Assembly: GCA_003255025.1 (NCBI GenBank)
Contig: QANY01009387.1
Span: 124,001 to 188,000, forward strand
Direction: 5' to 3'
DNA: 64,000 nucleotides
From: Datisca glomerata
Taxonomy: Eukaryota; Streptophyta; Magnoliopsida; Cucurbitales; Datiscaceae
The notes beneath the pieces were generated by a model. The model ran no database searches. It was not told the DNA's origin and saw only the letters and a program-made list of their open reading frames with translations. Shown here piece by piece: positions 20,640 to 61,130 of this stretch. Numbering within the stretch: position 1 is the first letter of the stretch; the number at the start of each line of letters is the position of its first letter. The position numbers and the translations under genes are program-made.

Positions 20640-23600
20640 AGAGTATGATCAACTTCCATTCAATATATATAACGGACATATAGTTTAGGCCTTTTATGAC
20701 ATTACCTTTCAAGCTTATATATTTTAATATTTTTAAATATTTCTTCAATATTGTGAGTGGTGGAGGGTTCATAGGCAGAATTGGATCTATGTCTTTCAGA
20801 ATCAGAAGTCTTCAATAAATTACAACACGTGACTATAGTAGTCAATAGTTACATTACCACCCATAATATAACTCACAATGAGATTGTAAAACTCTTATCA
20901 CATGATTTACATGAATGCATCATTCCTGGTGGGAAAAATATATCACCTAAGAATCCAAAAATACAATCCTTATGGCAATAAAGATTGATGTCGCAGGTAC
21001 CCCAAATCTTGGAGAAGATCAGGAAACAATGTTTGATGCTATTTATACACTTTTTATACAATAATTGAACACTTCAATGGTACACCAAGTAATATTACTT
21101 CACGTATCCATGATTAATTAACTAATCTTAGGTGTCCTACCCTAAGTGATTTTGCGGTACAAAAATATAGTTTTGTCCAGAGTAATGGCTAGGGATGATA
21201 GTAATCAATTTTTTGGAAAAAAAATTTATAAATGGCTTACCGAATTTGTTTGCCCATAAAATGAGAACCGTCATCAATGGTGACCTAGGAACATACACTA
21301 TAATAGTCTCACCTATGGTACCATTATCACTACAGAAGGAATGATTAAGAATGTGTATTGATATGAAAATCAATAAACAAATTCAAAAAGAGAAGAAAAC
21401 TACCAAATATGAATTAGGCAATTTCTGTGAGCAATACGGATTGCCAGCTATTGCTCATTCTCAAAAGAATATGAAAAATTCTCAACTCAATCCTATAAAA
21501 ATTTACAAATCCTATAGGAGAAAATTTTACAAACAGAAAAATAAAAATTTTGACAAATATTTCTCTAAGAATAAAAATCATCCAAAAAGAAAATCTAATA
21601 AATAATTTATTGATAAAAGTAAAATCAAGTTTTTTAAGTGTGGTCAAAATGGTCATTTTTCTAACACTTGTCAAGTTAAAAATAAAGTTAATCAATTAAA
21701 AATATATGATGAAGAAAAACAAGAATTGTATAAAATTATAGAATCCATAGATTACTATGAAAGTAGTAATGAAAATTTAGGAGAATTTGATTCCTCTTAT
21801 TCTAATGAATTAAACTCTTCAAGTTTTAACAGTGATTCTCATAACATCTCTATAGAGTGTAATGATAACTGTTATCAGAAATTTGTTGATGTTTTAAATA
21901 AAAATGAAGAACAGAAAAAACTTTTGTTAGATTTAATTAGTAGAATTGAAAATAATTAATTAAAACAAAATTACCTTAAAAGACTTAGAAATATAATCCA
22001 AAAGAAAAAAAATTCTAAGTATAATAATAATATTGTTAACCTTTCACAAACCCTTGAAAAATTCAACAAAATGATATTATAAAACTCTTAGTCACAAGAT
22101 TTATAAGAATGTTTCATTTCGGGTGGGAAAAATATATCACCTAAAAATCCAAAAATACAATCCTTACGGCAATAAATATTGATGCCGAAAGAATCCTAAT
22201 TCTTGGAGAAGATTAGGAAACAATGTTTGATGCTATTAATACACTCTTTACACAATAATTGGAACACTTGATTGGTACACAAAGTAATATTACTTCACGT
22301 ATCTATGATCAATTAACCAATCTTAGGTTTCCTACCCTAAGTGATTTTGACGGTACAAAAGTATATTTTTGTCCAGAGTATGGCTAGGGATGATAGTAAT
22401 AAATCTTTTTGGAAAGAAAAATTTATAAATGGCTTACCAAATTTGTTTACTCATAAAATTAGAATCATCACCAGTGGTGACCTAGGAAAATATACTACAA
22501 TAGTCTCACATATGGTACCATTATCACTACAGAAGGAATGATTAAGAATGTGTATTGATTTGGAAGTCAATGAACAAATTCAAAAGGAGAAGAAAACTGT
22601 CAAATATGAATTAGGCAATTTCTATGAGCAATACGAATTGCCTGTTATTGCTTATTCTCAAAAGAATATGAAAAATTTTCAACTTAATCTTAGAAAAATT
22701 TACAAACCCTATAGGAGAAAATTTCACAAACAAAAAAATAAAAATTTTGACAAATATTTCTCTAAGAATAAAATTCATCCAAAAAGAAAACCCAATAAAT
22801 AATTTATTGATAAAAGTAAAATCAAGTTTTTTAAGTGTGGCCAAAATGGTCATTTTTCCAACACTTGTCAAGTTAAAACTAAAGGTAATCAATTAAAAAT
22901 ATATGATGAAGTAAACCAAGAATTATATATAATTATAAAATCCATAGATTACTGTGAAAGTAGTAACGAAAATTTAGGAGAATTTGATTCCTCTGATTCT
23001 AATGAATTAAACTCTTCAATTTTTAACAGTGATTCTCATAGCATTTCTATAGGATGCAAGGATAGCTGTTATCAGAAACTTGTTAATGTTTTAAATAAAA
23101 ATGAAGAACATAAATTTTTTTTTAGATTTAATTATTAGAATTGAAAATCATTAATTAAAATAAAATTACCTTGAAAGACTTAGAAATATAATCCAAAAGA
23201 AAAAAAATTCGAAGTATAATAATAATATTGTTAACCTTTCACAAACCCTTGAAAAATTCAATAAAATGGGATTATAAAACTCTTAGTCACAAGATTTACA
23301 TGAATGCTTCATTCGTGGTGGGAAAAATATATCACCTAAGAATCTAAAAATACAATCCTTACGGCAATAAAGATTGATGTCGAAAGAACCCCAATTCTTG
23401 GAGAAGATTAGGAAACAATATTTGATGTTATGAATACACTTTTTTATACAATAAGCGAACACTTCATTGGTACACCAAGTAATATTACTTCACGTATCCA
23501 TGATCAATTAACCAATCTTAAGTTTCCTACCCTAAGTGATTTTGACGGTACAAAAATATATTTTTGTTCAGAGTAATGGCTATGGATGATAGTAATCAAT

Positions 23601-24460
23601 CCTTTTGGAAATTAAAATTTATAAATGGCTTACCAAATTTGTTAGCCCATAAAATTAGAACCATAATCAGTAATGACCTAGGAAACATAGAGTACAATAG
23701 TCTCACCTACTGTACCATTATCACTACAATACAAAAGGAAGGAATAAGAATGTGTATTGATATGAAAATCAATAAACAAATTCAAAAAGAGAAGAAAGCT
23801 GCCAAATATGAATTAGACAATTTCTGTGAGTAATACGGATTGTCTGCTATTGCTGCTTCTCAAAAGAATATGAACAATTCTCAACTTAATCCTAGAAAAA
23901 TTTACAAACCCTATAGGATAAAATTTCACAAACAGAAAAATAAAACATTTGACAAATAATTCTCTACCAATAAAAATCATCCAAAAAGAAAACCTAATAA
24001 ATAATTTATTGATAAAAATAAAATCAAGTGTTTTAAGTGTGGCCAAAATGGTCATTTTTCAACACTTGTCAATTTAAAAATAAACCTAACCAATTAAAAA
24101 TATTTGATGAAGAAAACGAGAATTGTATAGAATTATAGAATCCATAGATTAGTATGAAAGTAGTAATGAAGATTTAGGAGAATTTGATTCATCTGATTCT
24201 AATGAATTAAACTCTTCAAGTTTTAACAGTGATTCTCATAACATCTCTATTAGGTGTAAGGATGGCTGTTATTAGAAATTTGTTAATGTTTTAAAAAAAA
24301 TCTAGAACAAGAATATTTTTTATTAGATTTAATTAGTAGAATTGAAAAGCCTTAACTAAAACAAAAATACCTTGAAAGATTTAGAAAGATAATCCAAAAG
24401 ATTTTTTTTAGTATAATAATAATAATAATATTGTTAACCTTAAAAAAGAAGTTACTCTTC
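20640..24460 (+). pseudogene. Caulimovirid coat-protein region, copy A (triplicated, broken)
   Basis: Each repeat encodes a basic, Lys/Asn-rich stretch followed by a CCHC-type zinc knuckle (C-G-Q-N-G-H-F-S-N-T-C) and an acidic Ser-rich tail, the layout of caulimovirid coat proteins. Knuckles lie at about 21627-21671, 22825-22870 and 24020-24070. In the first two copies the first Cys is replaced by Phe. In the third that Cys is present, but a one-base loss breaks the frame before the last Cys. An N-terminal piece at 20781-20981 (ending KNPKIQSLWQ) matches a minus-strand piece in copy B at 35506-35201. Coat protein role: binds and packages the viral nucleic acid. None of the copies is intact. 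Confidence 0.65.
20888..24430 (+). repeat. Three-copy tandem repeat, unit about 1.19 kb
   Basis: Units start with AAAACTCTTA at 22081 and 23277, and in diverged form at 20888. Periods are about 1193 and 1196 bp. Units one and two end with a CTTGAAAAATTCAA segment that is natural downstream sequence (also seen in copy B near 34070), and then jump back to the unit start. Each unit has its own substitutions and small indels, so the amplification is not recent. Confidence 0.9.
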
Positions 24461-24724
24461 GAGAACTTAAAAAAGAAATAAAAAAACATTAAGAATGAAA
24501 TAAAAGAATTAAAGAATTCAAACACTGAAATAACAAAGAATTAAATCTTTTCAAAAAATAGAAAATTTAATTAAAAAATTTGAGTCTAGTGAATTAAGAC
24601 AATCTAGTAAATCCCCAATATCACATAATGAAATTAAAGAATCTGTTGTCAACGTATAAGATGATGACAACTTCCTTCAAACCCTTAATCAAATAAACTT
24701 AAAAATGACACATAATGGTCAAAG

Positions 24725-25085
24725 TTAATATCCGAGACTTTGATTTCACCGTCATGGCTCTTATTGATTCAGAAGTTGACTTAAATTGTATGCATGAATG
24801 ATTTGTTCCTACCAAGTACTTCAAGAAGATAAAAGAATATTTGTCCTCTGTCAATGGTATACGCACACATATCAATTAAGAAATCTCCAAAGTCCATATT
24901 TGTCAAGACAATGTATGTTTTAAGACATTATTTGTTTTAGTAAAAAATATTACAGATAAAATTATTTTGGATTTACCATTCATTTTTCTATTGTATCCTT
25001 TCACAACAGAGCATGATGTAATTATTACTTATCTCATGGATACGCCTGTCAAATTCAAGTTTTTTCTTTTTCTCACAATGAGAAA
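24725..25085 (+). pseudogene. Caulimovirid aspartic protease region, copy A
   Basis: The translation includes VMALIDS (protease active-site region; the usual D-S/T-G is D-S-E here), VHICQDNVCFKT, FVLVKNITDKIIL and LPF, with a stop in the middle. The same order of motifs is read on the minus strand at 33738-33415 in copy B. In the family this domain cleaves the viral polyprotein. Inactive here by substitution and stop. Confidence 0.65.
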
Positions 25086-25439
25086 TTGAAGACTTTAAAA
25101 CAAGATTCAGTTTATAAAACTGTGAATTTAATTTCTTGTAAACAAAACAGCTATGTTTTCTTGAAAATGAAATAAAATTCAAAAGAATTGAAAAACAAGT
25201 TCAAATCATACTCTTAAAAATGAATTAAAATTCTTGAAGAGAAAATTTGTAAAGAATTGTATGCTAGCATTCTCATGCATTCTGGCATAGGAAGCATCAT
25301 ATTGTCAATCTATCTTATATTAGAGATTTGATGAGAAGAATATCCCTACTAAGGCACAACCAATTTAGATAAATTATTAATGCTTAAATTCTGTATGAAA
25401 GAAATTACAGAACTCCTTAATATAAATATTATCAGGAGA

Positions 25440-25855
25440 AGCATATCTCATTGTTCATAAATTGCCTTTATGTCCAAAAAGTAAGTGAAATTGAACGAGG
25501 AGTTCTTCGATTAGTCATTAATTATAAGCCCCTTAATAATGTTTTGAAATAGATAAGATGTCATATACCAAACAAGAGGGACTTAATCAACAGACTTGAA
25601 GTTGTTGTTGTATTTTTTAAGTTTGACCTGAAATCTGAATTCTAGAAAATCTAAATAAATGAGAATGATAAGTATAAAACTATATTTGTAACTCCATATA
25701 GTCATTATGAGTGAAATGTAATGTATTTTGGTCTAAACAATACTCCTAGTCAATTTTAGAATATAATGAATGAAATTTTCAATAAATTTACTGGTTTTTC
25801 TACTGTTTACATTAATGATGTCCTCAATTCTAACCCATTTACTTGCACACAATCA
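25440..25855 (+). pseudogene. Reverse transcriptase fragment, copy A
   Basis: RT landmarks in order: RLVINYKPLN, FKFDLKSEF, YKTIFVTPYSHYE, MYFGLNNTPSQF and the catalytic box region VYINDV. The family has Y-x-D-D, so the first catalytic Asp is Asn here. Several stops precede 25766. The frame that starts at 25766 fuses the RT tail directly to the AlkB-like region, which implies an internal deletion of RNase H. Confidence 0.75.
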
Positions 25856-26390
25856 TTTCAAGATCCTGTCATGGAAGAATTTAAAAAATTTGACCTATCA
25901 AACATTTCTAACTATCTTGAAGAAACTGGAAAGGTAAAGTCAAGAATACTCAACCAAAATTTATTTAAAACAAAAAAATTCAATGGAAGGACAACTGCTT
26001 TTTGCTCAAATTTTTCATTCATTGATTACGGTCATAACACATATAAATATCCAAGAAATAAATGGGTTGATGAATTGGATAAAATTCTGGAAGAAGTTAG
26101 GTTGAAGCATGACTTCAACGCATCATTAATTCAATGGTATGAAAAATATGAAAAAATAAGTTATCATAAAGATGATGAAATCTGTTATAAAGAGAGTAAA
26201 ATTTTAACTATGAACCTATTGGGAGAAGTAATTTTCAAAATTGAGTTTTCAAACAAATTAGTCATAGAACTTTTTACATAGCATGCCTAATGGATTTCAA
26301 AAAAGTCATAGGCATGTTGTGGAATCCCTAACTAAAACAAGAATCAATATCACTTTTAGAAAGCATGTAAGGTTGATTAATGATTAGATT
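25856..26390 (+). pseudogene. AlkB-like 2OG-Fe(II) oxygenase domain in pararetrovirus copy A
   Basis: The 171-residue frame from 25766 continues past the RT tail into an AlkB-like domain. It has FNASLIQWY, the iron-binding H-x-D in SYHKDDE (His at 26165, Asp at 26171), then ILTMNLLGEVIFKIEF. A TAG at 26279 ends it, but the next frame at once gives MPNGFQKSHRHVVES and RINITFR (distal His at 26313, Arg at 26340 and 26358). This set (N-x..Y, HxD, LT-N-L-G, H..R..R) is the AlkB signature, and it is closest in wording to the AlkB domains of plant RNA viruses, which demethylate RNA. Known members act as oxidative demethylases using 2-oxoglutarate and Fe(II). Here all metal and 2OG ligands are readable, but a frameshift separates the two halves. 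Assigned by motif only. Confidence 0.7.
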
Positions 26391-26419
26391 ATAGCAGAGT
26401 CATCGACTCCGGAATTGGC

Positions 26420-26935
26420 CCTTAAGGACAAAATTAAAGATGAGTCTTCTACTCCTAGTCAAGCTCAATTAATAATTCTTGGGTCCATCAGACCTAATTT
26501 TCAATCAGCCTTTGTCAATCAATTTGACCATTTTCAATATCTGAACCTTTTGATGCCTAATCTCTTAATCAATCAATCACAAAATATAAGAAATCATCTC
26601 TATTTCTGAAAAAATCCAAGCAAAAATCTCTTTCATATTGATCTCATATTTACTCATATAAAAGATCTTGCTCAAATTGTAAAAGCCTATTTCAGACACA
26701 AGGACAAAAGTATCAGTTTCTACAGAGACATTCTCTTGGAAACCAAATCTATAAATATTAACCCAATTGAAAATCATGAAAGAAATATTCTCTATCATTC
26801 CTTCTATATGCTTAAAATTGGGACTATAGAAGGCTGGAAGGCTCATCCTTCAGCTATTAAAATACTTTTAAATAAAAAATAATATAATTATATTGATTAT
26901 ATTGATGTTTGGTACAATCTTCTTGCATCAAAATA
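26420..26935 (+). pseudogene. Conserved unrecognised domain after AlkB, copy A
   Basis: A broken frame encodes a Ser/Gln/Asn-rich linker (26415-26609) and then NLFHIDLIFTHIKDLAQIV, SISFYRDILLETKSI, LYHSFYMLK, EGWKAHPS and YIDYIDVWYNLL. Matching words (NLFHIK, AHLKDPAQIAKG, LSFYRDIFLETESI) are read on the minus strand in copy B at 31714-31352, so the domain belongs to the element. I do not recognise its function. Confidence 0.55.
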
Positions 26936-26936
26936 T

Positions 26937-27120
26937 TAATTTTTGTCACTCATGATTTTTAAATTTCGATTTTAAAATTGATTTTTAAAATTAGTTCTTA
27001 AGATGGTGGTCCATTCACGGTCCTGTCATGGAACTATTTTCGATAGATTTTCAACAATGTTTTTATTTATTTCTAAAAGTTTACAAGCTCTCACCAATTG
27101 AGATTTTTTTTCCCTCAACT
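26937..27120 (+). repeat. 3' non-coding end of pararetrovirus A, inverted in B
   Basis: Inverted match to 31090-31300: both contain words around ACCATTTTAAGAACC / CCATGAATAGACC and CTCACCAATTGAG. The two viral copies therefore face each other tail to tail. Confidence 0.7.
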
Positions 27121-27349
27121 TCTATGTTTCTCAAAAAAATATAAAATACCCCGGATCCTAAAGTGGTAATATGCAATTGAAGATGGAATCCTCGCCCAGC
27201 AATATTATATTAAATAGTGGGACACGTTTAATACCCAGAAAATAATTGCCTCCATTAACCCAAATCCACAAACCAAACAATCCAATTCAAACTCATCCAA
27301 AGAATCCAAACCTGGCTATAAATCATCTGTGAATTCTTGTTTCAATACT
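27121..27349. other. Spacer after copy A
   Basis: Non-coding, somewhat C-rich in pyrimidines. A CTATAAAT word lies near 27316. Origin not clear (host or viral intergenic). Confidence 0.35.
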
Positions 27350-27785
27350 AATTAATCATTATAAATCAAAATTTAAAGACTTGTAAGTTTTATTTTCGTT
27401 AAACAAAAATTCACAGATGATTTCAATACCATGTCTTAAAATAAAATGCAATTCCGCCTCTTTTGGTAGCAGAGCCAAACCTGATAGGGTATTTACTACT
27501 TGCCTAATTCCACCTCTTTTAAACTAAATGCAATTCCACCCAAGTGGTTGAATTCTTGTTTCAATACCATGTCTTTAAATCAAACGCAATTTCGCCTCTT
27601 TTGTGGTATCAAGTAAGTAAGTAGTAAAAACCCTATCAGGTTTAACTTTGATACCAAAAGAGGAACAATATAATTAATGCTCCTTCTCACTAATTAATGT
27701 TGGAAAGAAAGAAGAAATGATTACAAAGAAAGTAGTTTTATTTTCCTTAAATAAATATTTGAATTATTGTTTCAATACCATGTCA
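27350..27785. repeat. Pararetrovirus leader fragments in head-to-head arrangement
   Basis: A plus-oriented piece with a primer-site-like word (TTGGTAGCAGAGCCAAAC, about 27463-27480) is followed by a minus-oriented piece with TTGGTATCAAAGTTAAACC (27641-27658). The same pair recurs at 29330-29700. The block ends at a (TA)n tract. Confidence 0.65.
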
Positions 27786-30096: not shown

Positions 30097-31089
30097 AAGT
30101 AAAGTGGAGTTTACCGGGAACTCATAACTTACCTGAACTATTCTACTCTACAAAAGTAAAAATATTTTACATTTTTACTTTTGTATACTTTTGGCTAGAA
30201 ATAGTAAAAATCATAAATAGTTGCCTAATTATTTGACAACTAGTACAATTATTACAGAAAATGATAAATTATAAAGATTCCTCGATAATTGTTATCTCGA
30301 TCTTCTCATGTCTTGATCGTTACCTTATTCTGGTGCAGCCATTATTGTCAATCCTTGATAATTGCTATCTTGGACTTTTGTGTCTTGATTGTTGATCATA
30401 ATTATTGTCCGAAAAAGTCATTGGGGCTTGTTATTGTGCATTGGATTCTAGTTTGTGGAGAAGCCATTATTACTTATCTTGAAGATCATTATAACTGTTG
30501 CATTGTGCTGAAGTGTCATTATGATTCATCAACTGATTTTTGGCTTTTAAGCGTTTTGCCAAAGATACTTTTGTTCATTTACCACTGAGATCAATATTAT
30601 TGAATGAGTCATTCAATTGCTGAGGAGTAACCTTTCTAGAGGATTGATCTTTTTGATTTAATTTGGCGACTTCAGTGTGCAGATGATTCGGAGTCAAGTT
30701 CATTATTATCTTATAAAAGGAGAAGCATTTTTTGGATTGATTTTTTCTCCAATTTGGATTTTGGCTTCATGGCCTTTGATTTACCTTTTGAAGAGTGTTC
30801 TGATTTGGTTATGGATTTCAGATTTCGATGGATTTAAACTGGATGGTTTGATTTGTGGATCTGGGTGAATGGACTCATTAATTTTTAATGGAGGTTAGAT
30901 AAAAAGATTTTCTAGTCTCATAATGTGATGGACACTTGTAAATTCATACTTGATGGAAGCAATTATTTTATGGGTATTTAACTTATCCCACCATTTAATA
31001 TAATACTTTCTGGTGATGATTATCTTTTCAACCGAGTATTGTCATTTCAAAATCAGTTATTTTTTATTTTATTAAAAAATAAAGTATTT

Positions 31090-31300
31090 GGGGAAAGGAA
31101 ACCTCAATTGGTGAGGCCTTGTAAGCATTTAAAAACAAATTAAAACATTGTTGTAAATCAATTAGAAAAAGTTCTAAATAAGACCATGAATAGACCACCA
31201 TTTTAAGAACCAATTTAAAAAACTAATTTTGAAATTGATATCACAATTTTAAAATCAAAAGTGGGAGAAATCGCTATTTTGATGTAAAAAAATCATGTGT
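31090..31300 (-). repeat. 3' non-coding end of copy B
   Basis: Inverted counterpart of 26937-27120 in copy A. Confidence 0.7.
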
Positions 31301-31351
31301 CATGCGTCGATATAGTCAAAATAATTATATTGTTATTTATTTAAAACTATT

Positions 31352-31715
31352 TTAGAACTTAAAGGATGGATTCTCTAATACTTCATAGTTATAATTCTGA
31401 GAATAGAGAAAGAAAAACAAAATTATTTTCTCAGTATTTCTGGTTGGGCTAGTTTTTATGGACTCTGTTTCTAAGAAAATGTCTCTGTAGAAACTGAGTT
31501 TTTTGTTATTATGTCCACGGACATAGTGGAATTTAGGAATAAAATGTCCTTTGGCAATTTGAGCAGGATCCTTCAAATGAGCAAATGAAGGCTTAATATG
31601 AAAGAGATTTTCACTGGCCATTTTTTGAAAATCAAATGATGATTTCTTGTATTTTGAAATTGGTTGATTGGACAATTGGACATTAAAAGATTGAGGAATT
31701 AGTTGATTGGACAAG
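31352..31715 (-). pseudogene. Conserved unrecognised domain, copy B
   Basis: A 120-residue frame with ENLFHIKPSFAHLKDPAQ and LSFYRDIFLETESI, collinear with the domain after AlkB in copy A (26420-26935). It lacks the WKAHPS and DYIDVWY part in frame. Function unknown. The shared position after AlkB in both copies supports it as a genuine module. Confidence 0.55.
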
Positions 31716-31719
31716 AGTC

Positions 31720-32072
31720 ATTGTCCTGACTTTGTTCCGTCCAGTCCCGATATATACACATTGTATTTTTTAATTTTAGCCTTAATTCTTTTGATTTTTA
31801 ACCTGTAATTGATTTCTAAACTTCTTAACATAATCTAAATCTCTAAAAAGGCCCAAAACAGCCCAAAAGCAAAAAAAAAAAAAAATCAAATTCAGCCCAA
31901 AACAGTCCAAAAAAGCTAAAAAAATGGAGTAAAAAATGGGAAAAACCCCCGTTTCGTCCCGTCCTGCTTGAGATTTTCTCTCTATACGGGATGCGACAGG
32001 ACTAAAAAAAATTGTCCAGTTCCGATTGGGACGGGACAAAAAGACCCAAAACCTGTCCCATACACACCCCTA
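31720..32072. mobile_element. Nested non-coding insertion in copy B
   Basis: Interrupts the viral coding order just after the AlkB RISITFR motif. It contains GGGACGGGACA-type words and CCCATACACACCCCTAA at the right edge, reminiscent of MITE-like repeats with GGGGTGTG termini (compare 53221). An A13-14 run lies near 31870. The open frame 32039-31782 is an artefact of this insert. Confidence 0.45.
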
Positions 32073-32560
32073 AGTTTCTGAAAGTGATACTGATTCTTTT
32101 AGTTAAGAATTTTAGTGCATGTCTATAACCTTTTTGAAATGCATCAGGCATGAAAAAGAAAATTCCTTCCAATATCATTAATTATTTTATCTGGAAATTC
32201 AATTTTAAATATTGCATGTCCCAATACAGTTAAAATTTCTCTATTATCATAACAGATTTCATTATGTTTGTGAGAACCTATTTTTCCACCATTTTCATAT
32301 CATTGAACTAGTGCTGCATTTAAGTCATGCTTCAACCCAACATCTTTCAAAAATTTATCTAATTCATTAATCTAGGCATTTCTTGGATATTTAAATCAAT
32401 TATGACCATAATTAATGAATGAAGATTTTGAGTAAAAAGCGGCTACCATGTCATTGAGCTTTTTTATTTTAAAAGAATTTTGATCGAGTATTATGAGTTC
32501 TAACTTTCTGTATTCTAGTAGACCAAAATTTTCCAATTCTACCATTGCAGAACCTTGAAA
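32073..32560 (-). pseudogene. AlkB-like domain in pararetrovirus copy B
   Basis: Minus-strand translation shows NAALVQ, then GGKIGSHKHNEICYD (the Asp of HxD is His here), EILTV with HAIFKIEF, and then FMPDAFQKGYRHAL with KRISITFR just before the insertion at 32072. The order and spacing match copy A. Stops occur, and one iron ligand is lost, so it would be inactive even if translated. Confidence 0.65.
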
Positions 32561-33320
32561 TGATTTCCTGCATAAACTTATGAAAGAGAAAGTTAGGAAT
32601 TAAATTATTAATATATCGTGTAAATTCAGTATTGAGATAAAGAATGCTAAAAGTAGATTGTTAGGTGGCAAAACTTTGTTTGGAAGTAATTTCATAACAT
32701 GTTTTGCAGATTTGAAATTAATCGAAAGAAATTTTTGACTTAATAAAGTAAATTGTATGATTTGATCAATTGATTTAATATATATTTCAAATTCTGAAAA
32801 TCTACACATAGGTCGAAACAATTTGATTTTTCTTGTAAAAATAACTAAACTATTTTATTTTATTATCTTGGAAATAATTTAAAATATTTCAAGTATTGTT
32901 TAACATATTTATTAATGCAAACAATCAAAAAATTTAACCAGTATTGTTTAATAAGAATATTATTAATGTACACAATTAAAAAATCAGTGAATTGGTTGAA
33001 AGTTCCATTTATTATACTTGGAGCATTTCTAAGATCAAATGACATTATTTTTCATTTATAACTTCTAAATGTAATTTTGTACTTAATAATTTTATTTGTA
33101 TGGCTTTGCCAAAATCTATATTGTTTTGTCAAACTTAGAGAATACATCAGTATTTTCAAGTTTGTTGATTAAGTCTCTTCTGGTATTGGATATCTTATCC
33201 ATTTCAAAACATTGTTAAAGGGCTTGTAATCAATTACTAAACAAGGAATTCCTCGTTCAAAGATTTTAATTTGATTTTGAAGAACAAGATTTTGAATTTG
33301 TTCTTAAATTCTTCTATATT
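32560..33320 (-). pseudogene. Reverse transcriptase and RNase H remnant, copy B
   Basis: The RT part at 33045-32863 has MSFDLRNAPS and VYINNIL, where the catalytic Y-x-D-D is Y-I-N-N. Further along, 32821-32600 gives CRF..YI and FKSAKHVM, and near 32600 words like NNLIPNFLFHKF that correspond to the caulimovirid RNase H end (family form LPDFLTREF). Both enzymes are broken. Confidence 0.6.
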
Positions 33321-33414
33321 TTAATTTTCTTGTAGAAAACACAATTGTTTTTTCTTACAAGAAATTAAATTTATGGATTTGAAAATAGATTTTTCCTTTA
33401 AAATTTTCAATTTT

Positions 33415-33760
33415 TCATTGTGAGAAAAAAAAATTGAATTTAACGGGTTCATACAAGAGATTCGTAATTATATGATCATACTCTGTGGTAAAAGGATACA
33501 ACAGAGAAATGAATGGTAAACCTAAAATGATTTTATAAGTCATATATTTTACTAAGACAAATGATGTTTTGAAACATATACAGTCTTGGCAAATATGAAC
33601 TATGAGTATTTTATAATTGATATGCATACGAGTATCATTGGCAAAGATAATGATTCTTTTGTCTTCTTGAAGTACTTGGTTGGAACTAGTCTTTCCTTCA
33701 TACAATTCAAATCTATCTGTTGAATCAATAAGAGCCATTATTGTGAAATCAAAATCTTGA
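33415..33760 (-). pseudogene. Aspartic protease region, copy B
   Basis: A 107-residue open frame with MALIDSTDRFELYEG, VHICQDCICFKTSFVLVKY and ILGLPFISLLYPF. The active-site triad D-S/T-G reads D-S-T. Collinear with 24725-25085 in copy A. Confidence 0.65.
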
Positions 33761-34329: not shown

Positions 34330-35510
34330 ATTCAAACTCTTCAAATTTCATTTTCACTCTCATAATATTCTATTGTCCTGATGATTCTAAACAATTCTTG
34401 TTTATCTTCATCAGAGATTTTTAATTGATTAATTTTATTTTTATCTTGACAAGTATTTGAAAAATGACTATTCTGACCATATATAAAACACTTAAATTTT
34501 TTAATAAACTTTTTATTGAATTTTCTTCTAGAATAATTTTCACTCTTAGAGAAACGTTGGTCAAAATTTCTATTCTTGGAGAAGTATTGGTTAAAACTTT
34601 TATGCTTATTTTTGTGGTATTGTCTCCTATAAGGCTTATGATTCATTCTAGGGTTTAAATGGAAATTCTTTCTATTTTTTGGAAAAGGGCAATAGTAGAT
34701 AACTCATACTGCTCACAAAAATTACCTAATTTATATTTTATAGTTTTATTTTCTTTTTAATTTGTTTATTGATTTTTATGTCAATGCACATTTTTAGACT
34801 TTTCTTATGTATTATTGTACCGTAAATGAGACTTTTATAGTCTATATTACCTAGGTTATTACTAAGGACTCTTCTAATTTTATGTGTGAACAATTTGGGT
34901 AATTTATTAATGAATATTTCTTTCTAAAAGAGTTGATTACAACCATCACTTGTCATTACTATGGATAAATATATATTTTTATACTAGTACAAATCACTTA
35001 GGGTTGGACACTTAAGATTAGTGAATTGATCATGGATACGCGAAGTAATATTACTTGGCGTTCCAATGAAGTGATCAATTAATGATAAATATATCATGCA
35101 TTATTTCCTGATCTTCTCCAATAATTAGGGTTCTTTCAGTATCAATCTTCATTGCTCAAAGGATGATATTTTTAGATTCTTTTGTAAGATATTGTTCTCA
35201 TCAGGAATGAAGTATTCCTGTGAATCCTGTGACTAAAAGATTGATTACCTTAATGTGAAGTAAACTATGTGTGGTAATGTAGCTGTTAGCTCCTATTGCC
35301 ATGTGGTGTAATTTGTTGAGAACTTCCAGCTCAGAAAGTCTATCAATATTATATTCGTATAATTTCTTGGCAGACACAGAAAATTGATTAACTAAAGAAT
35401 TTTCATAAATTTGAATATCAAGAGGAATAGACTTTTTAGGCCATTTCCTTTCTAATTTATTAATTTCAAAGTGATTCTTCAATATTATTAATGTTTGAAG
35501 ATTCACTTAT
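34330..35510 (-). pseudogene. Coat-protein region, copy B (single copy)
   Basis: Minus-strand frames give ELEVLNKLHHMAIGANSYI (35506-35201), the basic segment YRRQYHKNKHKSFNQYFSK (34646 onward) and a zinc knuckle whose second Cys is Tyr (CFIYGQNSHFSNTC). In contrast to copy A, the segment is present only once. Confidence 0.6.
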
Positions 35511-36138: not shown

Positions 36139-37232
36139 TTAAAGAATTTTGTGATTAATTAAGATTTTTTCAGGTTTAATTTGAAATTTTGAAAGATTGT
36201 CTTGGTTAACAACCCTAACAGAATATGATGATTCATTAGTTTCGAATTTCTTTAATGTTTCTTTAATCTTATTAATATTTGAAGGTTCATTGGAAGATTC
36301 ATAGGTAGATTCTAACCTATGGTTATCTAATTCAGAGATACTATCTCGCAAATTTTTTAATTTTTAAGTATTCTATTATCAAGAATTTTTTCATAATGAA
36401 TTTGCAAGGGTTTAATGAATTCTTTTTTAGGTTGAAATTTTTTTATGATTAATTAGGATTTTCTCAGGTGATGGATGACTATCAGTCATTACACTAGGGT
36501 CTTCCTTGACAAATCTAGATGTAAAAATTACTTTACTATTTTTTTCATAAATATCATCGATATAATCAAGGAAAAACATGTCAAATTTGTATTTTTGGAT
36601 GAATGTATTCCATTCAGCAAGTGTGATTTTTCTTTGATCTATACTATATGAATCTCTGAACCTACTACGTCTATCTAGATTGACTGGGTCATTATTGTAC
36701 TGATTTAGACTTGCCCAATCTGATTTGTATTCTTGGTTCAGGGAATCTGGATTCAAATTTTTAGAATGTTTTAACTCTTGTTCTAATTTTTGAATCCTAA
36801 AATCTTGATTATTAATAGATGATTTAGAAAATGAACTCCTAGGGATACTAGACTGGCTATACTCTTTAATTGGAGGATAAAAACTAAAAGTTTGAGAATT
36901 TGTGGTTATGCCTTTAGGTTTAAATTTAAATTTTTAATTCTTGTTCTATTCAGATCCTAAGATCTTGATAAATATTAATGGATGACCTAGAAGAAGATTT
37001 GAAGCTAATATTTTTATTGGGGATTTTGGATTTATTACATACCATATGATCTACTTGATCATTTGCAGAGTATTCAAAATTATCTTCTTGATCATTTGGA
37101 AGGTATTTAAATTATTTATGATCTACTTGTTTATCTGCTAATTCAAAATGTTCTTCATCCATTATGTCAGATATTGAAGACATTGTAGACCCAATGCTAC
37201 TAGAAGAACTACTTCTAGATAATCTAATCATT
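36139..37232 (-). pseudogene. N-terminal region of pararetrovirus copy B
   Basis: An ATG at 37232 begins MIRLSRSSSSSSIGSTMSS, and a stop follows within 40 codons. Later pieces (36756-36427, 36351-36139) include DRRSRFRDSYSIDQRKITL and FFLDYIDDIYEKN and repeat PEKILINHK. Low-complexity and charged. I cannot assign it to a movement protein. It precedes the coat protein in the viral order. Confidence 0.45.
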
Positions 37233-60338: not shown

Positions 60339-61130
60339 GGTTCACCAAATATGTACTGGGGTTCACCAAATACGTACTGGGGTTCACCAAATACGTACAA
60401 ATTAATAATTCTTGGATGTGTTCACTAAATATGTACGGAGATTCAACAAATATGTACCGATGTTTTCACCAAATATGTACTGAGATTCAACAAATATGTA
60501 CTGGGGTTCACCAAATATGTATAAGTCAATTTTGTACGTATTTGGTGAACTCCCAGTATATATTTGGTGAACCCCTATACATATTTGGTGAACCCTTCTA
60601 AGAATTATTAATTTGTACATATTTGGTGAACTCCACTACATTAGGGGCTCACCATATTCACTAAATATATACTGAGGTTCACAAAATATGTACAAATTAA
60701 TAATTCTTGAAGGGATCACTAAATGTATATAAATGTTCACCAAATACGTACATGAGTTCACCAAATATGTACAAATTAATAATTCTTAGAGGGGTTCACC
60801 AAATATGTACATGGGTTCACCAAATATGTACAAATTAATAATTCTTGGAGGAGTTCACCAAATATGTACATGAGTTCACCAAATACGTAATGAGGTTCAT
60901 CAAATACGTACTATGGTTCATCAAATATATACAACCCGTAATGTAGTGGGGTTCACCAAATATGTATAAATTAATAAATTTTGGAGGGGTTTATTAAATA
61001 TGTATAGGGGTTCAACAAATATGTATCAGGGTTCACAAAAAATATACCAGGTTCACCAAATATGTACAAAATTGACTTGTATGTATTTGGTGAACCCGAG
61101 TACATATTTGGTGAACCCCAGTATCAAGTA
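60339..61130. repeat. Minisatellite array A, unit about 18-20 bp, both orientations
   Basis: Roughly 35-40 copies of GTTCACCAAATATGTAC with short spacers. Blocks at about 60535-60645 and 61078-61122 carry it inverted (GTACATATTTGGTGAAC). An AAATTAATAATTCTT spacer also recurs. Frames 60402-60620 and 60416-60601 are artefacts. Confidence 0.9.

What the first reader, a model, noticed from the sequence alone, without database searches (positions are those of the whole stretch)
25856..26390. AlkB-type oxygenase domain encoded after the reverse transcriptase of a pararetrovirus-like element
Directly behind the RT tail, copy A encodes N-x..Y, H-x-D-D-E, ILTMNLLG, then (after a frameshift) MPNGFQKSHRHVV and RINITFR. 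This is the full AlkB ligand set in the right order and spacing. AlkB domains are known in plant flexiviruses and a few other RNA viruses, where they reverse nucleic-acid methylation. I do not know of a described caulimovirid carrying one. It could indicate a pararetrovirus lineage that protected its RNA or DNA from methylation damage or host RNA marking.
Basis: partly seen in the sequence, partly recalled or inferred. Interest (0 to 1): 0.87.

Follow-up and report, generated by a model that had tools for sequence, protein, structure and literature searches.

The report
Demethylase domain in fossil plant pararetrovirus
A plant genome holds many copies of a fossil DNA virus whose polymerase genes have decayed but which carries an AlkB-type enzyme domain (a kind that can strip methyl marks from RNA or DNA), while the polymerase-bearing sister elements examined lack that domain, hinting at a two-part virus in which one part supplied a demethylase.

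Summary
The AlkB domain is real and not a chance join. In copy A its first part (25889-26278) and its tail (26283-26384, next frame) match Pfam 2OG-oxygenase profiles. A decayed minus-strand element, copy B, has it in the same place. In the window's own genome 150 of 150 scored places match copy A's N-part, itself included, from 2722 first-look candidates. The better copy L022 passes the PF13532 cut-off; 21 of 33 stop-free copies keep all five core residues. The element is a caulimovirid, and AlkB is the N-terminal domain of its ORF2 protein. In the copies examined it occurs where RT and RNase H have decayed: 12 of 12 RT-type junctions lack it, and 10 of 10 ORF2 loci fetched without AlkB in the query have it. 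The leader-MP region is 94.5% identical between the types in one pair. This resembles 'component B' of bipartite florendoviruses with an added domain. Four full-text searches found no report of a caulimovirid AlkB. Deep selection is supported, recent selection is not; activity is untested and the donor unknown.

The parts
20793..24771 (+). Copy A: coat-protein region, about three partial tandem repeats, with zinc knuckle
   Evidence: tblastn with coat-protein pieces of related copies; repeats about 89-90% alike; zf-CCHC weak match, below cut-off
24775..25199 (+). Copy A: aspartic protease region
   Evidence: tblastn, 66% identity over its first part
25460..25825 (+). Copy A: reverse transcriptase remnant (fingers/palm, YINDV), with stops, cut off by a deletion
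   Evidence: tblastn to RT of RT-type element, residues 10-131, 72% identity
25889..26278 (+). Copy A: AlkB domain, N-part with H-x-D; stop at 26279-26281
   Evidence: PF13532 E 3.2e-6, 27.9 bits against cut-off 31.2, for 25856-26278
26283..26387 (+). Copy A: AlkB domain, C-part with second His and Arg...Arg, in the next frame, ends at TAG
   Evidence: PF03171 E 2.8e-4, 21.6 bits against cut-off 23
26418..27259 (+). Copy A: C-terminal part of the ORF2-like protein
   Evidence: tblastn
27464..27479 (+). Copy A: primer-binding-site-like sequence after ORF2
   Evidence: pattern match with 2 mismatches; aligns with the PBS stretch of L089
37651..37666 (-). Copy B: primer-binding-site-like sequence at its 5' end
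   Evidence: aligns with the PBS stretch of AlkB-type piece L089
33721..35464 (-). Copy B: coat-protein region (DUF7746 part, coat domain, zinc knuckle)
   Evidence: tblastn; PF24925 5.9e-10; PF22909 0.0083, below cut-off
33175..33713 (-). Copy B: aspartic protease region
   Evidence: tblastn
32747..33258 (-). Copy B: reverse transcriptase remnant incl. thumb
   Evidence: tblastn, RT residues 21-132 and 154-192
32568..32705 (-). Copy B: C-terminal remnant of RNase H (residues 107-152 of the 159-residue probe)
   Evidence: tblastn E 3.6e-7
32074..32545 (-). Copy B: AlkB domain, decayed (stops, frame breaks, iron Asp replaced)
   Evidence: tblastn 60-63% identity in two pieces; 75.6% DNA identity to copy A
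30823..31687 (-). Copy B: C-terminal part of the ORF2-like protein, separated from AlkB by an insertion
   Evidence: tblastn

Best explanation
Copies A and B are old, decayed members of a high-copy endogenous caulimovirid family whose ORF2 protein begins with an AlkB-type Fe(II)/2-oxoglutarate oxygenase domain. Two element types coexist in this genome. An RT-type has coat, protease, RT, RNase H and ORF2 without AlkB, with a primer site and movement protein at the expected distance upstream. An AlkB-type has coat protein, protease, a decayed RT/RNase H stretch, AlkB and ORF2, and, in the one copy read that far upstream (L089), a primer site and movement protein. SHOWN: the domain, its recurrence, its fixed place, its absence from the RT-type junctions looked at, and a near-identical leader and movement-protein region in one pair of copies. 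INFERRED: the AlkB-type behaved like component B of a bipartite (or partner-dependent) florendovirus. It was copied by RT and RNase H supplied in trans from RT-type genomes and shared their leader by recombination. It supplied a demethylase acting on methylated viral pregenomic RNA, or on host RNA, so as to blunt an m6A-based or similar host control. My split of confidence: domain real and recurrent 0.97, component-B-like element 0.8, demethylase used in replication or counter-defence 0.5.
For: Profile matches. Recurrence: 129 PF13532 matches at E<=1e-3 in the genome (150 of 427 candidates scored; host genes included), and 150 of 150 scored places matching copy A's N-part, copy A itself included (2722 first-look candidates; 75 of 150 free of stops by my hand count). 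In L022 AlkB lies in one frame with most of the protease and with ORF2. Old copies L060 and L044: RNase H ends in a stop that overlaps the AlkB ATG; RT-type L083 and L084: the ORF2 ATG overlaps the RNase H stop in the same way. RT-type junctions lack AlkB in 12 of 12 (L083, L084; L092-L101), not counting the chimera L082. Ten ORF2 loci found with a query free of AlkB carry it in 10 of 10, with only RT remnants of 31-37% identity. Leader-MP-DUF7588 region 94.5% identical over 2209 bp between AlkB-type L089 and L090, a piece about 5 kb upstream of an RT-type RT; 89.4% over 959 bp with L091; coat-protease 79-86% and ORF2 69-76% in the pairs compared. RT-type: RVT_1 1.2e-33 and RNase H 9.2e-20. 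Pairs more than 12% apart: AlkB dN/dS 0.30, adjoining RT/RNase H remnant 0.72. Simulated neutral decay of random codons gives 0.40-0.72 after choosing the best 150 and 0.60-0.88 without choice.
Against: Between copies A and B the AlkB block shows no coding constraint (0.64 in frame, 0.65 in a shifted frame), whereas protease and coat do (0.20, 0.15). Among young copies AlkB dN/dS is 0.40, against 0.52 and 0.65 in its shifted frames; neutral decay plus choice of the best copies can also give 0.40, and in that simulation the chosen copies were only 3-8% apart, so it does not match the deep pairs. 12 of 33 stop-free copies lack at least one of five core residues. Of the ten ORF2 loci, seven were already in hand from AlkB searches, one of them the query's own; the three new ones (L103, L104, L111) all have AlkB in broken pieces. 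The RT-type may carry every viral gene itself, so strict bipartition is not shown. One intergenic comparison was only 84% over 152 bp. That L090 and L091 belong to the same copies as the RTs downstream is inferred from spacing. Comparison with solved structures found no AlkB and with NCBI AlkB models only E 0.05 and 0.064 for one of three proteins. No expression, enzyme or infection data.
Confidence: 0.8

Rival explanations
1. The AlkB-type is a defective, satellite-like genome amplified by RT-type helpers or by host duplication; AlkB is an old passenger with no recent function.
For: No coding signal in AlkB between A and B; young-copy dN/dS not separable from neutral decay plus choice of the best copies; 12 of 33 stop-free copies miss a core residue; the three ORF2 loci not already known from AlkB searches have broken AlkB frames.
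Against: Pairs more than 12% apart: dN/dS 0.30 and third-position share 0.46, against 0.72 and a flat profile in the adjoining RT/RNase H remnant. In L022 the frame is open through the decayed RT into AlkB and ORF2.
Confidence: 0.25
2. A host ALKBH gene piece was joined to the element by chance.
For: AlkB matches that look like exons of host genes exist in the genome.
Against: Same junction in A, B and ten further loci; 150 of 150 scored places. Against the element profile, the ORFs of L018/L021 (one AlkB gene, probably a host gene) score at most 9.7 bits and those of L014-L017 (the two best genome hits, probably host genes) at most 3.2 bits, below all 11 AlkB-like proteins of viral contigs (10.0 to 26.3 bits).
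Confidence: 0.02
3. The element is an LTR retrotransposon with an AlkB ORF, like the orchid Ty3/Gypsy elements.
For: AlkB ORFs are published in Phalaenopsis Gypsy elements (PMC9289625).
Against: Viral movement protein, caulimovirid coat-domain match (24.6 bits, just under the cut-off of 27), initiator-tRNA primer site, no integrase match in the pieces scanned.
Confidence: 0.02
4. The oxygenase domain is made but is not a demethylase: it binds RNA or acts as a silencing suppressor or structural ORF2 domain.
For: Gln replaces the usual Asn of N-x-Y in 32 of 33 copies; sequence distance from characterised AlkBs.
Against: Each iron ligand is kept in 31 or 32 of 33 stop-free copies, which a mere binding role would not need.
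Confidence: 0.2

Closest known systems
Component B of bipartite endogenous florendoviruses (Geering et al. 2014, PMC4241990, passages read)
   Same: MP, coat and protease kept; RT and N-terminal RNase H missing or decayed; C-terminal extension homologous to ORF2; leader/MP close to the RT-bearing partner; both types at compound loci
   Different: Carries an AlkB domain between the RNase H remnant and ORF2, not mentioned in the passages read; the partner here is not visibly truncated in the pieces seen
Non-autonomous pararetroviruses eRTBVL2/ePVCVL of grasses (Chen et al. 2017, PMC5491270, abstract and passages read)
   Same: No RT/RNase H; an accessory domain in place of it (eRTBVL2); noncoding and MP regions shared with a partner virus
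   Different: Their accessory domain (SFKTE) has no known function; here it is a recognisable AlkB-type oxygenase
Phalaenopsis Ty3/Gypsy elements with an AlkB ORF (PMC9289625, first part and passages read)
   Same: A plant reverse-transcribing element with an AlkB domain; m6A demethylase activity was shown in vitro there
   Different: LTR retrotransposon; there AlkB is nested in Arabidopsis AlkBH5 homologues; here a caulimovirid ORF2 domain far from the presumed host AlkB sequences tested
AlkB domains of flexi- and closteroviruses (recalled, and as mentioned in passages of PMC9289625 and PMC2714080)
   Same: Virus-encoded AlkB with an F-Q...H-x-H and R-x-S/N-x-T-F-R ending (recalled likeness)

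Membership tests
Caulimoviridae | Initiator tRNA-Met primer-binding site | tested here: met
   TGGTATCAGAGC in L089, L090 and L091; degenerate matches in the window, 4 against 0.46 expected
Caulimoviridae | Movement protein, zinc-knuckle coat protein, protease, RT, RNase H without integrase | tested here: met
   RT-type: RVT_1 and RNase H; MP by Pfam beside an RT-type copy and by homology upstream of two others; zinc knuckle and coat domain by Pfam in AlkB-type L022 (coat under the cut-off) and by homology in RT-type; protease by homology only; no integrase match in the scanned pieces
Florendovirus (tentative genus) | Two ORFs in different frames, ORF2 of unknown function after RNase H | tested here: met
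   Overlapping ORF1 stop and ORF2 ATG in L083 and L084
Florendovirus (tentative genus) | Monophyly in AP-RT-RH1 tree | not testable with these tools
   No reference caulimovirid sequences were at hand; not filed as a member on this ground
Component B of bipartite florendovirus | MP, coat, protease present; RT and N-terminal RNase H missing | tested here: met
   MP read in one AlkB-type copy only (L089), and not found in the window
Component B of bipartite florendovirus | C-terminal extension homologous to ORF2 of the RT-bearing component | tested here: met
   ORF2 69-76% DNA identity; tblastn
Component B of bipartite florendovirus | Intergenic region >90% and MP >87% identical to the partner | tested here: inconclusive
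   Leader-MP region 94.5% over 2209 bp in one pair and 89.4% over 959 bp in another, but only 84% over 152 bp for one intergenic piece
AlkB family (PF13532) | Score over Pfam cut-off | tested here: met
   L022 41 bits against 31.2; copy A's N-part alone 27.9, below
AlkB family (PF13532) | HxD...H iron site and R...R | tested here: met
   All five kept in 21 of 33 stop-free copies; each iron ligand in 31 or 32 of 33
AlkB family (PF13532) | N-x-Y 2OG motif (recalled from E. coli AlkB) | tested here: not met
   Gln in place of Asn in 32 of 33; Tyr kept in 33 of 33
AlkB family (PF13532) | Oxidative demethylation activity | not testable with these tools
Orchid-type AlkB Ty3/Gypsy retrotransposon | Integrase and paired LTRs | tested here: not met
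   No integrase match in scanned pieces; no LTR pair seen around A or B in the self-comparison; LTRs not sought in other copies

The most novel reading that the evidence does not exclude
A reverse-transcribing DNA virus of plants with a divided genome: one component carries the polymerase, the other traded its polymerase for a nucleic-acid demethylase fused to ORF2, so that epitranscriptomic (or DNA-damage) counter-defence was delegated to a separate genome segment.
Probability: 0.45. Interest if true: 0.88.

Novelty: new variant of a known kind. Interest (0 to 1): 0.77.

Why it matters
AlkB domains were known in plant RNA viruses and in one group of LTR retrotransposons, but I found none reported in a caulimovirid. 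Finding one at a fixed place in many fossil copies, and on the RT-decayed partner in the copies examined, suggests a job for the accessory domain of partner-dependent pararetroviruses, whose counterpart in grasses (SFKTE) has no known function. It would make testable whether RNA methylation restrains reverse-transcribing plant viruses. A mining tool for such elements reports reduced sensitivity for component B sequences (PMC9719215, passages), so other cases may be hidden.

Tried and rejected
Chance host-gene join and LTR retrotransposon: rejected on call results (see rivals). An early idea that AlkB replaced RNase H outright was corrected: old copies keep the RNase H C-terminus before AlkB. 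A candidate for RT-RNaseH-AlkB order at C722 turned out to be an RT-type to AlkB-type chimera. Comparing the AlkB-type MP with the MP beside the RT-type C775 ORF2 alone was judged unsafe, because that MP could belong to a neighbouring copy, so two other RT-type copies were checked.

Led nowhere: protein database searches (none at E<=0.001), viral contigs (no relative), PDB by sequence (no AlkB), a structure model of copy A's N-part alone (mean pLDDT 47, not used further). Not done: a tree with plant RNA-virus AlkBs, and other plant genomes (none held). Literature: four searches joined AlkB or 2-oxoglutarate to caulimovirid words (8, 11, 4 and 1 papers listed); (25 listed of 13,989) and searches had other terms. 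I judged from listings and opened seven papers in part: PMC9289625 (first part and passages), PMC4241990, PMC10377300, PMC9719215, PMC9794742 and PMC2714080 (passages), PMC5491270 (abstract and passages). Subscription papers are mostly not held.

Full report
What is there. Copy A carries, on the plus strand, an open frame 25760-26281 that runs from an RT remnant into an AlkB-like domain; the domain ends in the next frame at 26387. The two pieces, searched apart, match PF13532 (3.2e-6) and PF03171 (2.8e-4), each slightly under its Pfam cut-off. A second element, copy B, lies on the minus strand; its AlkB block is 75.6% identical to A's over 446 aligned columns. Copy B's AlkB has stops and a broken frame, and its iron-binding Asp is replaced.

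Genome-wide. The window lies in a 678-Mb genome. PF13532 gives 129 matches at E<=1e-3 from 150 scored of 427 candidates, with likely host AlkB exons among them. Copy A's N-part gives 150 matches of 150 scored, itself included, from 2722 first-look candidates; 75 of the 150 have no stop inside by my hand count. In L022 the domain sits in a frame that also reads most of the protease and ORF2, and scores 41 bits against a cut-off of 31.2. All 12 copies of alignment A2 match PF13532 at E<=0.001.

Anatomy. With probes from related copies, copy A reads coat (three partial repeats), protease, RT remnant, AlkB, ORF2 C-terminus. Copy B reads coat, protease, RT with thumb, the last third of RNase H, AlkB, ORF2 C-terminus. 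The movement-protein probe found nothing in the window. In the old copies L060 and L044 the RNase H frame ends in a stop that overlaps the ATG of AlkB; in RT-type copies L083 and L084 the ORF2 ATG overlaps the RNase H stop in the same manner. AlkB is therefore the N-terminal domain of ORF2, not part of the polymerase polyprotein. In L022 a frame change in the RNase H remnant puts protease, RT remnant, AlkB and ORF2 into one frame.

Two types. RT-type pieces have RVT_1 at 1.2e-33 and RNase H at 9.2e-20, and a movement protein (8.1e-16) lies beside one of them, though it could belong to a neighbouring copy. In 12 of 12 RT-type junctions (L083 and L084; L092-L101) there is no AlkB; in L092-L101 ORF2 follows the end of the RNase H match by about 55 bases. 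Ten loci fetched with an ORF2 C-terminal query that contains no AlkB all have AlkB in front and only RT remnants of 31-37% identity. Seven of these ten were already known from the AlkB searches, one being the query's own locus; the three new ones (L103, L104, L111) have AlkB in broken pieces. The AlkB-type piece L089 has a primer site and a movement protein. It is 94.5% identical over 2209 bp to L090, which lies about 5 kb before an RT-type RT, and 89.4% over 959 bp to L091, likewise upstream of an RT-type RT; that these pieces belong to those RT copies is inferred from spacing. Coat-protease is 79-86% and ORF2 69-76% identical in the pairs compared. Loci mixing both types exist: a chimera at C722, and C277, where a leader, an inverted coat piece and an RT-type stretch follow an AlkB copy.

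Selection. Among 33 stop-free copies, pairs more than 12% apart give AlkB dN/dS 0.30 with a third-position share of 0.46; the adjoining RT/RNase H stretch gives 0.72 with a flat profile. Among 22 young copies AlkB gives 0.40 (shifted frames 0.52 and 0.65), the RT/RNase H stretch 0.81, a protease-RT stretch 0.65 and, in 11 copies, an ORF2 stretch 0.67. Simulated neutral decay of random codons gives 0.60-0.88 without choice and 0.40-0.72 when the best 150 of 2722 are taken; those chosen copies were only 3-8% apart, so the control does not fully match the deep pairs. Deep constraint is thus supported and recent constraint is not. Against it: between A and B the AlkB block looks neutral (0.64, against 0.65 in a shifted frame), although protease and coat show 0.20 and 0.15, and 12 of 33 copies have lost at least one of five core residues. 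The 33 were what remained of 61 sequences searched after dropping short, stop-bearing and duplicate rows and copy B, so they overstate intactness.

Origin. The element profile gives at most 9.7 bits against the ORFs of one likely host AlkB gene (L018/L021) and at most 3.2 bits against those of the two best PF13532 loci (L014-L017), but 10.0-26.3 bits against 11 AlkB-like proteins of viral contigs. That argues against recent capture from the host genes tested. No plant RNA-virus AlkB was available, so the donor is open.

Comparison. Geering et al. 2014 (PMC4241990, passages) describe component B: MP, coat and protease, no RT or N-terminal RNase H, a C-terminal extension homologous to ORF2, a leader and MP close to component A, and compound insertions. 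The AlkB-type fits these points as far as tested, though one short intergenic comparison (84% over 152 bp) is below their 90%. Chen et al. 2017 (PMC5491270, abstract and passages) describe non-autonomous pararetroviruses with an unexplained SFKTE domain instead of RT/RNase H. A word search for AlkB and oxygenase in the main text of PMC5491270 gave none; in PMC4241990 I did not search those words, and the passages read do not mention them. The orchid Ty3/Gypsy AlkB (PMC9289625, first part and passages) is the nearest functional precedent, with m6A demethylation shown in vitro.

Verdict. The AlkB is a genuine, recurrent ORF2 domain of a component-B-like endogenous caulimovirid. The demethylase role and dependence on the RT-type are inference.

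Noticed in passing
window 20793-24771: Copy A has its coat-protein region in about three partial tandem repeats, about 89-90% alike.
   Followed up: partly
window about 31718-32073: Copy B has a stretch inserted between AlkB and ORF2 that is absent from copy A; its nature was not studied.
   Followed up: no
L089, L090, L085; window 36427-36933 and 35201-35506 (-): Pfam 'unknown function' families DUF7588 and DUF7746 map between movement and coat protein, and to the coat N-terminal region, of these elements, so they are probably caulimovirid domains.
   Followed up: partly
G000, whole genome: The movement-protein family PF01107 gives 150 of 150 scored matches (2644 first-look candidates): the genome looks rich in movement-protein-bearing viral elements.
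   Followed up: no
L082 (C722): Chimera in which an RT-type RT is joined in frame to the coat end and protease of an AlkB-type, suggesting recombination between the two types.
   Followed up: partly
L001, L004-L013: 11 of 13 viral-contig stretches hit by the AlkB motif pattern carry AlkB-like proteins; their contigs are 30-500 kb and probably phages.
   Followed up: no
window 60340-61118: Cluster of short imperfect direct and inverted repeats.
   Followed up: no
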